A DNA stretch of 64,000 bases, taken from Chloroflexota bacterium (GTDB lineage: Bacteria > Chloroflexota > Anaerolineae > Aggregatilineales > Phototrophicaceae). Where the stretch lies: contig JACRPS010000003.1 of the NCBI GenBank assembly GCA_016223085.1, forward strand, positions 1-64,000, given 5' to 3'. Shown in pieces: positions 6,715 through 60,327 of this stretch. Position 1 is the stretch's first letter. Each line of letters opens with the position of its first letter. The notes beneath the pieces were generated by a model, which worked only from the letters and a program-made list of their open reading frames with translations, did no database searches and had not been told where the DNA came from. The translations under genes were made by a program, and so were the position numbers.

Positions 6715-6728
6715 GTGATTATTTTCAC
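6715..6728. promoter_or_regulatory. CRP/FNR-like palindromic operator (GTGA-N6-TCAC)
   Basis: GTGATTATTTTCAC; near-identical to GTGATTTTTTGCAC at 22402. Confidence 0.55.
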
Positions 6729-6783: not shown

Positions 6784-6875
6784 CTAAATCGTCGCTCAGC
6801 CCACCGAAGCGGCGGATCGCAACCAGGCCCCAGTACAACCGCTGCCAATCCCCTCAGACAACGGGGATTTTCTTA
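6784..6875 (+). ncRNA. Candidate structured 5' leader / attenuator of the acs operon (copy 1)
   Basis: CTAAATCGTCGCT-CAGCCCACCGA-AGCGGCGG forms a 7-bp stem (6790-6796/6808-6814). AGCGG can also pair with CCGCT at 6839-6843. Followed by an AATCCCC...GGGGATTTTCTT hairpin. Paralogous to 22470-22567. Confidence 0.5.
6847..6874 (+). terminator. Terminator-like hairpin upstream of the acs operon
   Basis: AATCCCC-TCAGACAAC-GGGGATT followed by TTCTT; ends about 93 nt before the first ATG. Confidence 0.45.
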
Positions 6876-6929: not shown

Positions 6930-6943
6930 GTGAAATAAATCAC
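6930..6943. promoter_or_regulatory. Second CRP/FNR-like palindrome close to the first acs-operon start codon
   Basis: GTGA-AATAAA-TCAC within ATTGTGAAATAAATCACGAT, overlapping TCACGAATTGTGA (6921-6933); start codon at 6967. Confidence 0.5.
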
Positions 6944-6966: not shown

Positions 6967-7356
6967 ATGGCAACCATTCGTTTCGACCTTCCGTTCCTCT
7001 ACGGCGATCATCATGTCCTTGAAGTCCGCCGCCTGCTATCGGAGATGCCCGGCGTCTTAGAAGTGTACGCAAGTAGCTGCTTCCAGCTGGTTGAAGTGAG
7101 CTACGACCCTACCCTGGTTGATGCTGACGCAATCGAATCAACGTTGTCCCAAGCGGGTTATCTGCAAGACCTGATGTTACCCACTGAAAAAGGTCTGCCC
7201 GCTTATGGGATAGACGAACCAGGCACCTTTCTCCGCCATACGGCTGCCTACACCCCTGTCAAGCAGGTTGTCAGCTTCGCGCAGCGTGTTCCTTATTCCG
7301 GCGCTCCACTCTGGCCGTGTCCCGGTATCGGTTTGCTTCAGAAAGGGGATGAATAA
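6967..7356 (+). CDS. HMA-like small protein encoded directly before CODH
   Basis: 129 aa with HMA-like pattern (VLEVRRLLSEMPGVLEVYASSCFQLVEVSYDPTLVDADAIESTLSQAGY); stop overlaps the cooS start. Confidence 0.5.
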   Translation: MATIRFDLPFLYGDHHVLEVRRLLSEMPGVLEVYASSCFQLVEVSYDPTLVDADAIESTLSQAGYLQDLMLPTEKGLPAYGIDEPGTFLRHTAAYTPVKQVVSFAQRVPYSGAPLWPCPGIGLLQKGDE

Positions 7357-9382: not shown

Positions 9383-12196
9383 ATGTCCCGTTACATTGCA
9401 ACCCGCGCCATTCGCGGCGCCAACGCGCTTGTCGCCGAAGCGGAGATAATGCTCCGTAAAACGCTGGCGGACAAAGGGCCAGATACACCGGTCGCTTTTC
9501 CCAATACCGCTTACTATCTGCCGCTGATTTTTGGTTTGACCGGACAGCAGGTGGAAACGGTCGGGCAGCTAGAACCGGTGCTGGCACACGCCCGCGCGCT
9601 GCTACATCCCATCCCCGCGCAAAAATATTGGACGCCCTACCTGGGCGAAACGCTGGACAGCGGTATGGCAACGCTGCTGGCTGCCGAAGTCATCGAAGCG
9701 ATTCGTTTTGTCTACGGCCTGCAACCGGAACCAATGGCCGGTTTTCACCTGGCCGGTGGCACTTCTTTCACCAGTCCTGATATGGCAAACGGCGGCGCGA
9801 ACGGGCACGACGGCCACCTCAACGGCCCGATAGATGACATTCAACTGCGCACCTGGGGCATCCAACTGGTAGATGGGCGTATGCCCGGTTTCGCGGCTAT
9901 TGTCGGCGCGGCGAAGTCGAACGAGGTCGCGGTGAAGATCGTGCGCGAACTTCAGCGCCGCAACATCCTGTGTTTCCTGTCCGGCAACGTCAACGGGCGC
10001 AGCATCATTCACCAGTTGGCGGAAGAAGGCGTTGAACTCGGTTACGACACCTATACCGTCCCGTTTGGCACGGACACCATCAGCGCCATATACGCGCTTG
10101 GTTTCGCGGTGCGGTCGGCGCTGACCTTCGGCGGCATGAAGGGCGGCATGGCGCGCGACATTCTGATGTACAACAAGGAGCGCGTGTTCGCCTTCGTGCT
10201 GGCGCTGGGCGAGGTGGACGACCTGAAATATGCTGCCGCAGCCGGGGCGATCAACTTCGGCTTCCCGGTTATTGCCGACACGGTGATTCCCGAAATTCTG
10301 CCGACCGGTATCACCACCTATGAACACGTCGTCAGCCTGCCCTTCAATGAAATCGAGGGCGCGGACGACCTGGAACGCGCCGAACGGCTGGTGCAGAAGT
10401 GCATCGAAGTGCGCGGCGTCAAGGTGAAAGTGGCGAACGTCCCCGTACCCGTGCCCTATGGTTCAGCCTTCGAGGGTGAGGTGGTGCGGAAAGCCGACAT
10501 GCGCATTGAGTTCGGCGGCAAATACTCGCGCTGCTTTGAATTCCTGCATATGGCCGAACTGGACGAGGTGACGGACGGTAAGATTGAAGTCGTCGGCCCC
10601 GGCTTTGAGCAGGTCGAAGCCCAGGGACACATGGACGTGGGCATCGTCGTCGAGGTGGCCGGGCGCGGGATGCAGAAAGATTTCGAGCCGGTGCTGGAAC
10701 GCCAGATACACTATTTCGTCAACGGCGCATCCGGCATTCAGCACATCGGCCAGCGTGATATTGCCTGGATACGGGTATCCAACGCCGCCGCCGACAAAGG
10801 CTTTAATCTGGAACACTTCGGCAAGATTCTCCATGCCCGGCTGCACGCCGACTTCGGCGCGATTGTGGACAAGGTGCAGGTGACGATCTATACCGAACCT
10901 GCTCCTATGCAGGCGTGGCTGGCAAAGGCACGCGAGGCATATGACTATCGCAACAAACGACTATCTGATTTGACTGACGATAGTGTTAGTGAATTCTTTA
11001 GCTGTGTATTATGCCAGTCTTTTGCGCCCGATCACGTCTGTATCGTCAGCCCGGAACGGCTTGGCCTGTGCGGCGCGTATAACTGGCTGGACTGCAAAGC
11101 CTCGTACAGCATCAATCCTACCGGCCCGAACCAGCCAATCAAACTCGGCTCGAATACCGATGACCGGAAAGGCTACTGGACAGGCATCAACCAGTACGCC
11201 CAGAACGCTTCACACGGCAAAGTCAGCGAAGTCGCCATGTACTCGATCATGGAAAACCCGATGACAGCATGCCTTACTGCTGATGCCGAAGTTGTCATTG
11301 ATGGCCGGGTTACCACTATTGGCGAATGGGTGGACACCCACTACGGTCACCAGGGGCCATTTGATGCAAGCGTTCTGACACTGAATGATGCCGGTCAGAT
11401 TGTACCGAGCCAGATTCTTGGCGTGCATCGTAACCCTGCACCGCCTTTCCTGGTGCAACTCGAAACCAAATCCGGGCAGCGATTGATCTTGACACCTAAC
11501 CACCCCATCGCCGTTGACCGTCCCGAAGGGCAAGTCTGGATACGGGCTGATGAGATAGCAGTTCATGACCGGGTGTACGCAGTGAAACGTATTCGAGAAC
11601 TTCCTGCGCTTGTCCCCATTCCTGCTGGTGTAGCCCCTCGTTCAAATCAGTGTATGGATTCGTTGAGCAGTTTCCTTGACACCATCACCGAAGCGGTAAC
11701 CATCCAAAATGACGGACAATACGAATCGGTCTACAACCTGAGTCTGCTGGACATCAACAGCTATCTGGCAAACGGCCTGCTGGTCAAAAACTGCGGCTGC
11801 TTTGAGTGCATCGTCATGCTGATACCGGAAGCCAACGGCGTGATGGTCGTCAACCGCGAGGACACCAGCATGACCCCGGCGGGCATGACCTTCAGCACGC
11901 TGGCCGGCATGGCCGGCGGTGGCTTGCAGACCCCCGGCGTCATGGGTGTGGGTAAGTTCTATCTCGTCAGCCCCAAGTTCATTTCGGCGGACGGCGGCTT
12001 CAAGCGCGTGGTCTGGATGAGCAGCGTCCTGAAACAGACGATGGCCGACGAACTGCAAGCGGTGGCCGAACGGGAAGGTGACCCGGATTTGATCGGTCGC
12101 ATCGCCGACGAACGCAGCGTAACAACGGTGGATGAACTGCTAGCCTGGCTGGAAGAACACAACCACCCGGCGCTGGTGATGGACCCGATTTTCTAG
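9383..12196 (+). CDS. acsB: CO-methylating acetyl-CoA synthase (AcsB) precursor interrupted by a mini-intein
   Basis: 937 aa. A-cluster ligand regions FSCVLCQSFAPDHVCIVSPERLGLCGAYNWLDC and CGCFECIVMLIPEANGVM, with ~174 extra residues before CGCFEC. Confidence 0.95.
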   Translation: MSRYIATRAIRGANALVAEAEIMLRKTLADKGPDTPVAFPNTAYYLPLIFGLTGQQVETVGQLEPVLAHARALLHPIPAQKYWTPYLGETLDSGMATLLAAEVIEAIRFVYGLQPEPMAGFHLAGGTSFTSPDMANGGANGHDGHLNGPIDDIQLRTWGIQLVDGRMPGFAAIVGAAKSNEVAVKIVRELQRRNILCFLSGNVNGRSIIHQLAEEGVELGYDTYTVPFGTDTISAIYALGFAVRSALTFGGMKGGMARDILMYNKERVFAFVLALGEVDDLKYAAAAGAINFGFPVIADTVIPEILPTGITTYEHVVSLPFNEIEGADDLERAERLVQKCIEVRGVKVKVANVPVPVPYGSAFEGEVVRKADMRIEFGGKYSRCFEFLHMAELDEVTDGKIEVVGPGFEQVEAQGHMDVGIVVEVAGRGMQKDFEPVLERQIHYFVNGASGIQHIGQRDIAWIRVSNAAADKGFNLEHFGKILHARLHADFGAIVDKVQVTIYTEPAPMQAWLAKAREAYDYRNKRLSDLTDDSVSEFFSCVLCQSFAPDHVCIVSPERLGLCGAYNWLDCKASYSINPTGPNQPIKLGSNTDDRKGYWTGINQYAQNASHGKVSEVAMYSIMENPMTACLTADAEVVIDGRVTTIGEWVDTHYGHQGPFDASVLTLNDAGQIVPSQILGVHRNPAPPFLVQLETKSGQRLILTPNHPIAVDRPEGQVWIRADEIAVHDRVYAVKRIRELPALVPIPAGVAPRSNQCMDSLSSFLDTITEAVTIQNDGQYESVYNLSLLDINSYLANGLLVKNCGCFECIVMLIPEANGVMVVNREDTSMTPAGMTFSTLAGMAGGGLQTPGVMGVGKFYLVSPKFISADGGFKRVVWMSSVLKQTMADELQAVAEREGDPDLIGRIADERSVTTVDELLAWLEEHNHPALVMDPIF
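11270..11791 (+). other. Mini-intein within AcsB (174 aa, no homing endonuclease domain visible)
   Basis: Starts CLTADAEVVIDGRVTTIGEW (block A), LILTPNHPIAVDR (block B, TPNHP), VYNLSLLDINSYLANGLLVKN (blocks F/G), then Cys+1 of CGCFEC. Flanks ENPMTA / CGCFECI match uninterrupted AcsB. Confidence 0.92.
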
Positions 12197-22401: not shown

Positions 22402-22415
22402 GTGATTTTTTGCAC
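22402..22415. promoter_or_regulatory. CRP/FNR-like operator upstream of the hdr operon (GTGA-N6-GCAC)
   Basis: GTGATTTTTTGCACTTG; matches GTGATTATTTTCACTTG at 6715 in 15/17 positions. Confidence 0.5.
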
Positions 22416-22469: not shown

Positions 22470-22567
22470 CTAAATCGTTGTTACATCGCATCGAAGCAGC
22501 GGCAAACCATCCAGTTTCATCACACCTGCTGAAAGTGAGCTTACGCTGCTTTCAGCTTTTGTTTTTT
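22470..22567 (+). ncRNA. Candidate structured 5' leader / attenuator of the hdr-mvh operon (copy 2)
   Basis: CTAAATCGTTGTT-ACATCGCATCGA-AGCAGCGG stem (22476-22482/22495-22501). AGCAG can also pair with CTGCT at 22526-22530. Followed by a hairpin and T-tract. Confidence 0.5.
22528..22567 (+). terminator. Rho-independent terminator-like hairpin in the leader of hdrC
   Basis: GCTGAAAGTGAGC-TTAC-GCTGCTTTCAGC followed by TTTTGTTTTTT; hdrC ATG at 22643. Confidence 0.7.
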
Positions 22568-22642: not shown

Positions 22643-23248
22643 TTGACCGACCAGCAATCGTTATCCCTGCGTCGTGATTCTCTATCGCCGCCCCTCCCAA
22701 GTCCTGGCAGCTTCCTCGAAGAAGTGATGGACGCTACCCCTGGCGACTCGCGTCTCCAGATGTGTATCCAGTGTGGCACCTGCGGAGGGTCGTGCCCTTC
22801 GGCAGCCGATATGGATAACACCCCCCGGCAAATCTTTGCCATGATTCGAGCCGACATGCGCGAGGCCGTTCTCCGCAGCAACACACCCTGGTACTGTGTG
22901 TCCTGTTATTACTGCACCGTGCGCTGCCCACAGGAAGTGCACATCACCGACGTGATGTACACGCTCAAAAGCATGGCAATCCGTGACAAACTTTACGACG
23001 ACTCGACGGCCCCCGATTTTTCCCAGACGTTCATTGGCTACATTGAAAATTTCGGTCGCAGTTTTGAATTCGGTTTGGCGACACGCCATAACTTACGACA
23101 TCGCCCCTTCCAGCTTCCTTCGATGGTTCCGATGGGGCTGGGGATGCTCACCAAAGGCCGCATGGATTTAACGCCGCAGCGGATTGACAGGGTGGAGCAG
23201 CTTCAGGCGATTCTCAGCCGCGCCATCGAACTGGAGGTGACGGGATGA
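22643..23248 (+). CDS. hdrC: Heterodisulfide reductase subunit C
   Basis: CIQCGTCGGSCPSAADMDNTPRQIFAMIR...PWYCVSCYYCTVRCPQEV. Confidence 0.92.
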   Translation: MTDQQSLSLRRDSLSPPLPSPGSFLEEVMDATPGDSRLQMCIQCGTCGGSCPSAADMDNTPRQIFAMIRADMREAVLRSNTPWYCVSCYYCTVRCPQEVHITDVMYTLKSMAIRDKLYDDSTAPDFSQTFIGYIENFGRSFEFGLATRHNLRHRPFQLPSMVPMGLGMLTKGRMDLTPQRIDRVEQLQAILSRAIELEVTG

Positions 23249-60051: not shown

Positions 60052-60219
60052 GGTGTTTCCTTTTAGAGGTTATACGGTTGGCTTGTTTCCTAAGGCTACA
60101 TCCCTATACGCATCACCTTTGTAAAAAGTTTCACAAAAGGAGTGCTGCGCTGGCAAATGAGCCACCTGCTCTATTGCTCACCGGACAGGCGCGGGGTATA
60201 CTGGTAACAACTCAACAGA

Positions 60220-60308
60220 CCAGGGGAGTCCGTGTCAAGCGGGCTGAGAGGGCGCGTATCGCCGCGCCGACCCTTAACCTGATCCGGGTCATACCGGCGT
60301 AGGGAGTG
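60220..60308 (+). promoter_or_regulatory. TPP riboswitch (THI element)
   Basis: CCAGGGGAGTCCGTGTCAAGCGGGCTGAGAGGGCGCG...CGACCCTTAACCTGATCCGGGTCATACCGGCGTAGGGAGTG: GGCTGAGA, ACCCTT, CCTGATCCGG and CGTAGGGA boxes present. Confidence 0.95.
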
Positions 60309-60327
60309 TATCATACCGACATGAACG

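What the first reader, a model, noticed from the sequence alone, without database searches (positions are those of the whole stretch)
6784..6875. Candidate novel structured leader RNA before the acs operon, with a matching copy before hdr-mvh
The leader CTAAATCGTCGCT-CAGCCCACCGA-AGCGGCGG and the leader at 22470 (CTAAATCGTTGTT-ACATCGCATCGA-AGCAGCGG) each form a 7-bp stem. Sequence differences keep the pairing: one C-G to T-A compensatory change and one C-G to T-G change. The loop keeps a CnCAYCGA pattern. The 3' arm AGCRG can also pair with a downstream CYGCT: AGCGG/CCGCT at 6808/6839 and AGCAG/CTGCT at 22495/22526. This second pairing is compensated too, and the start-to-start spacing is 31 nt in both copies. 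A terminator-like hairpin follows in both. Mutually exclusive pairings ahead of a terminator are how riboswitches and attenuators work. I do not recognise a known riboswitch class, and the gene context (CODH/ACS, Hdr-Mvh) suggests a C1, redox or cofactor signal (inference).
Basis: partly seen in the sequence, partly recalled or inferred. Interest (0 to 1): 0.88.

Follow-up and report, generated by a model that had tools for sequence, protein, structure and literature searches.

The report
New attenuator-like leader RNA in Anaerolineae
Two operons for carbon and electron metabolism in this Chloroflexota bacterium start with a short RNA switch that appears able to stop transcription before the genes are reached; related switches, absent from the public RNA family library, sit before many unrelated genes in the same bacterial class.

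Summary
The element is real. All 7 held genomes of the genus that carry hdrC have it before that gene; the acs copy occurs only in this genome. Covariance models then found related leaders before unrelated genes (caspase, papain-like and M23 peptidases, esterase, zinc-ribbon protein): 42 accepted loci in 23 Anaerolineae genomes. Shared anatomy: a -10 box, region 1, region 2, a spacer of about 23 nt, region 3, then a terminator whose 5' arm overlaps region 3, then a Shine-Dalgarno. Pairing 2:3 holds in 99.6% of cells with four covarying pairs. Pairing 1:2 is only moderately supported. No Rfam match. Best reading: a transcription attenuator, with 1:2 plus 3:4 OFF and 2:3 ON. The signal is unknown; the gene mix argues against a C1/redox/cofactor riboswitch. 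In the acs copy the terminator is weak and does not overlap region 3, so attenuation there is doubtful. A CRP/FNR-like palindrome is strongly enriched upstream of acs and hdrC across the class.

The parts
22402..22415 (+). CRP/FNR-type palindrome GTGATTTTTTGCAC upstream of the hdr leader; centre 61 nt before CTAAATC
   Evidence: same spacing in the genus homologues
22470..22534 (+). hdr leader element (core of the RNA family)
22476..22482 (+). region 1 (CGTTGTT), pairs with region 2
22495..22502 (+). region 2 (AGCAGCGG): 3' arm of 1:2, and its last 6 nt (22497-22502) are the 5' arm of 2:3
22526..22531 (+). region 3 (CTGCTG): 3' arm of 2:3; its last 4 nt begin the terminator stem
22528..22567 (+). 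intrinsic terminator 3:4 (GCTGAAAG...CTTTCAGC) and U tract
22643..23248 (+). hdrC, first gene of the hdrCBA-mvhDGA operon (TTG start)
6715..6728 (+). CRP/FNR-type palindrome GTGATTATTTTCAC upstream of the acs leader; centre 62 nt before CTAAATC
6784..6847 (+). acs leader element (second copy, only in this genome)
6790..6796 (+). region 1 (CGTCGCT) of the acs copy
6808..6815 (+). region 2 (AGCGGCGG) of the acs copy
6839..6844 (+). region 3 (CCGCTG) of the acs copy
6847..6875 (+). weak terminator-like hairpin (AATCCCC/GGGGATT, TTTTCTT); does not overlap region 3
6967..7356 (+). first gene of the acs (CODH/ACS) operon, HMA-like 129 aa

Best explanation
The element is the 5' leader of an mRNA and works as a transcription attenuator of the 1:2 / 2:3 / 3:4 type. 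Transcription starts just before region 1. If region 1 (CGTYGYTG) pairs with region 2 (AGCRGCRG), region 3 (CYGCYG) is free to begin the terminator hairpin and transcription stops before the genes. If 1:2 is prevented, region 2 pairs with region 3, takes the base of the terminator's 5' arm, and RNA polymerase reads through. Shown here: conservation, position, pairing 2:3, and its overlap with the terminator. Moderately supported: pairing 1:2. Inferred: the start site, termination itself, and OFF as the default. Unknown: what opens 1:2; because the genes share no pathway, a general condition or a trans-acting RNA-binding factor is more likely than a pathway metabolite. At hdr and acs this layer lies downstream of a probable CRP/FNR-family activator site. 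The acs copy has probably lost tight coupling.
For: Found before hdrC in 7 of 7 genus genomes that have hdrC. Model R2, which did not model 2:3, found 7 further loci (G024, G039, G042, G080, G085, G011, G013:C355); in the 14-row alignment with them, 2:3 pairs in 84 of 84 cells, with 0 of 500 shuffles reaching the covariation score. With 40 members: 99.6% of cells paired, 4 covarying pairs, 10 both-side cells against 1.3 in shuffles (0/500), and slid registers much worse; one member has CGGTAG/CTACCG, another CGGCGA/TCGCCG. 40 of 42 accepted loci have a terminator; in 37 of these its 5' arm takes in at least 3 nt of region 3, where the same test fires at 4-6% of window sites. 40 of 41 downstream genes have a Shine-Dalgarno, median 65 nt after the core. 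31 of 42 have a -10 hexamer matching at least 5 of 6 just before region 1, against 21% in shuffles. The 2-to-3 spacer is 21-26 nt in nearly all.
Against: No expression data. Having a terminator was part of the acceptance rule, so the 40 of 42 is partly built in. R3 modelled 2:3, so the 40-member count leans towards it. Pairing 1:2 is violated at outer pairs in many members (80% of cells; a +3 slide has as many both-side changes), and its strength does not separate accepted from rejected hits (Mann-Whitney p 0.57). The acs copy's terminator does not overlap region 3. No signal is identified.
Confidence: 0.68

Rival explanations
1. Metabolite riboswitch for a C1, redox or cofactor signal: the 1:2 hairpin with its loop is the aptamer.
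For: Regulates hdr-mvh and acs in this genome by position; mutually exclusive pairings; spacer after region 2 has a loosely conserved GAAAACA.
Against: Relatives precede genes of many unrelated pathways; the 1:2 loop varies in sequence and length across members; no Rfam match.
Confidence: 0.08
2. DNA operator: regions 1, 2 and 3 are inverted half-sites (CGYYGYT) of a DNA-binding protein just downstream of the start site, not RNA pairing arms.
For: The arms resemble each other, as operator half-sites would, and sit at fixed spacing.
Against: Conserved G-U pairs (UG at 9-30 in 8 of 8), the covariation of region 3 with region 2, and the overlap of region 3 with a terminator stem are RNA features; the TF-like site is separate and upstream.
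Confidence: 0.07
3. Stand-alone small RNA genes, each with its own promoter and terminator, that happen to lie upstream of other genes.
For: Promoter and terminator flank a segment of about 95 nt.
Against: In 24 of 41 loci the start codon lies within 80 nt of the core, nearly all with a Shine-Dalgarno, leaving no obvious room for a second promoter after the terminator; the element lies on the strand of the gene.
Confidence: 0.12
4. Ribosome-mediated attenuation through a leader peptide that overlaps region 1.
For: The hdr core is open in one frame (read); 1:2/2:3/3:4 is the classical arrangement.
Against: Only 2 of 42 cores have a start codon after an SD-like sequence, and each frame holds a stop in about half or more of the members.
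Confidence: 0.05

Closest known systems
Protein- or ribosome-controlled attenuators with anti-antiterminator, antiterminator and terminator (trp, pyr type; from general knowledge)
   Same: Three successive, mutually exclusive helices between promoter and first gene, the last a terminator.
   Different: No leader peptide found, no match to the Rfam families, and the same leader serves unrelated genes in one bacterial class.
Riboswitches of the transcription-terminating kind (a TPP riboswitch lies at 60212-60323 of this window; its mode was not examined)
   Same: 5' leader, alternative pairing, intrinsic terminator.
   Different: No conserved aptamer-like core: the 1:2 loop varies and only the pairing arms are strongly conserved; genes share no pathway.
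Chloroflexi-1 RNA, RF01698 (listed in PMC2864571)
   Same: A structured RNA reported from Chloroflexota.
   Different: Rfam 15 was searched whole and no family matched any member searched here.

Membership tests
transcription attenuator (works like) | intrinsic terminator between promoter and first gene | tested here: met
   40 of 42 loci, against 4-6% of random sites; acs copy weak. Terminator presence was used for acceptance.
transcription attenuator (works like) | antiterminator helix that shares bases with the terminator | tested here: met
   2:3 paired in 99.6% of cells, covarying; overlap in 37 of 40; not met in the acs copy
transcription attenuator (works like) | helix that competes with the antiterminator (1:2) | tested here: inconclusive
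   A9: 90.8% of cells, 0/500 shuffles; A10: 80.3%, 9/500 for both-side cells, +3 register similar; does not separate accepted from rejected hits
transcription attenuator (works like) | conditional termination in vivo | not testable with these tools
   needs transcript ends
known Rfam family | match to a curated covariance model | tested here: not met
   No match at gathering score in the window's leaders and none with E up to 1 in 15 homologous loci; only chance-level matches
metabolite riboswitch | highly conserved ligand-binding core | tested here: not met
   loop of 1:2 and most of the spacer vary
metabolite riboswitch | genes of one pathway | tested here: not met
metabolite riboswitch | ligand binding | not testable with these tools
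   needs in-line probing
leader-peptide attenuator | translated short ORF over region 1 | tested here: not met
   2 of 42 cores with start and SD

The most novel reading that the evidence does not exclude
A previously undescribed family of leader RNAs, spread through Anaerolineae, couples many unrelated genes (peptidases and other exported proteins, and in one genus the Hdr-Mvh operon) to one shared physiological signal read by a dedicated RNA-binding factor or by the RNA itself.
Probability: 0.35. Interest if true: 0.78.

Novelty: new variant of a known kind. Interest (0 to 1): 0.62.

Why it matters
Gene regulation in Chloroflexota is little known. A recurrent leader RNA in front of unrelated genes, with a clear switch anatomy and no Rfam match, gives a directly testable regulon and a handle on a signal that nobody has named. 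It also suggests two layers of control on the Hdr-Mvh operon: a CRP/FNR-like site and an attenuator.

Tried and rejected
Known Rfam family: none. Leader peptide in the hdr leader: one frame is open, but changes between homologues are not synonymous and other members have stops or indels. Element at acs in other genomes: absent; G052, the one other family member whose strong homologue of the first acs gene was found, lacks it. Sister-genus hdrC leaders: element absent. Pairing AAGCAGCG with the terminator's 3' arm (8 bp in hdr): not kept in acs, G013, G002 and G008 (read from the sequences). Copies outside Anaerolineae: of the phylum-level hits outside the class, all but one lack a terminator, and that one (G627) passes only with a marginal hairpin. 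Further copies in this genome beyond hdr, acs and C10: weaker hits are without a terminator. Integron attC or a mobile repeat: judged unlikely because the accepted copies sit in leader positions, but not tested by a genome-wide survey. Literature: nothing relevant found.

Full report
Observation. They align from the A/T-rich stretch before CTAAATC to CYGCTG, and the seed pattern occurs twice where 0.01 is expected. The genome is a 6.0-Mb assembly; close relatives are Chloroflexota MAGs of class Anaerolineae, several labelled Aggregatilineales. The downstream operons are CODH/ACS and hdrCBA-mvh.

Homologues. A model from the two copies (R1) found clear hits in five other genomes of the genus and weak ones elsewhere. 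hdrC occurs in 7 genus genomes, and the element lies before it in all 7; in G008 the R1 score was weak (E 2.6), but the hit is on the same strand about 190 nt before the hdrC match and keeps all seven 1:2 pairs. The acs cluster's first gene was found only in G000 within the genus. Sister genera carry a different hdr leader without the element.

Structure. All 8 sequences form it. Column shuffles gave a 6-bp fully paired helix with a both-side change in 0 of 2000, and a helix like 1:2 in 9 of 2000; relatedness is not controlled there.

A wider family. Model R2 (8 sequences, structure 1:2 only) gave weak hits; some of these, read by eye, have the same plan before unrelated genes. In a 14-row alignment with them, 2:3 pairs in 84 of 84 cells, with two covarying pairs and 0 of 500 shuffles reaching the covariation score; 1:2 pairs in 90.8%. 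R2 did not model 2:3 as pairs (though it did favour the consensus letters of regions 2 and 3, and the seven were picked by eye), so this is largely independent support. Model R3 (structure 2:3) was run on genus, class, order and phylum. The stronger hits were then filtered by a terminator starting in or next to region 3 followed by at least 5 T in 9, and by a downstream gene; two homologues that fail the terminator test (G042z, G080) and G200a, for which no downstream ORF was found, were kept by eye. G390a was dropped because its flank is masked, G143 because an open frame runs across it, and G044:C321 as coding. The terminator test fires at 3.6% of random window sites and 5.8% of intergenic sites. 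42 loci in 23 genomes were accepted, all in Anaerolineae, mostly in the window's order, with G200 from another family of the class. The own genome has three: hdr, acs, and one before a caspase-like gene on C10.

Anatomy. A -10 hexamer, at least 5 of 6 to TATAAT, lies just before region 1 in 31 of 42 (21% in shuffles); 40 of 41 downstream genes have a Shine-Dalgarno-like sequence, median 65 nt after the core; the start-codon picker preferred starts with such a sequence, so that figure is generous. The 2-to-3 spacer is 21-26 nt in nearly all. In 37 of 40 terminators the 5' arm includes at least 3 nt of region 3; the exceptions are G025:C1, G142:C6 and acs. On 40 members 2:3 is paired in 99.6% of cells with 10 both-side changes against 1.3 in shuffles; 1:2 in 80.3%, with 13 against 7.4 (9 of 500), but a +3 slide is similar, and the strength of 1:2 does not distinguish accepted from rejected hits. 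Predicted energies have medians of about -8.5 (1:2), -8.3 (2:3) and -19.9 kcal/mol (3:4), so 1:2 and 2:3 are balanced and the terminator wins if it can nucleate (inference).

Mechanism. The promoter-like sequence noted lies before the terminator, which lies before the Shine-Dalgarno, so the genes would need read-through (inference from position; the stretch between terminator and gene was not searched for promoters). The overlap of 2:3 with the terminator base makes 2:3 the antiterminator; 1:2 would be its competitor. What tips the balance is unknown. Leader-peptide control is unlikely, as is a pathway metabolite. At hdr and acs the palindrome GTGA-N6-TCAC (hdr with one mismatch) has its centre 61-62 nt before CTAAATC, the distance of a class I CRP site if transcription starts there (inference; the -10 boxes of hdr and acs are poor, 4 of 6 at best). 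The palindrome is found exactly in 9 of 22 acs upstreams (0.12 expected) and 23 of 44 hdrC upstreams (0.33 expected); these upstreams are partly related, so the counts are not independent.

Limits. No transcripts were seen. Model E-values are rough; many R3 hits were coding sequence and were discarded. The acceptance rule builds in the terminator. The Rfam library and the papers searched are the only tests of novelty.

Noticed in passing
6930-6943: A second exact GTGAAATAAATCAC palindrome lies between the acs leader and the acs start codon, 23 nt before ATG; possibly a second regulatory site that bypasses or overrides the leader.
   Followed up: partly
6715-6728, 22402-22415 and upstreams of acs and hdrC in relatives: CRP/FNR-type palindrome strongly enriched upstream of acs and hdrC across Anaerolineae, with a conserved TGACAA about 20 nt further upstream in the genus.
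   Followed up: partly
9383-12196: The acetyl-CoA synthase (AcsB) gene carries an intein-like insertion around residues 630-800.
   Followed up: no
L059 and L060, upstream of hdrC: Sister-genus hdrC leaders hold crossing inverted repeats (AGAGGCA..TGCCTCT and GATTGTTTG..CAAACAATC), a possible pseudoknot or other element unrelated to the one studied.
   Followed up: no
60212-60323: TPP riboswitch (RF00059) above the gathering score.
   Followed up: no
L113, L115, L205: The leader precedes a small zinc-ribbon protein in three genomes; the one scanned (G024) weakly matches Anti-TRAP and the DnaJ zinc domain, below both curated cut-offs.
   Followed up: no
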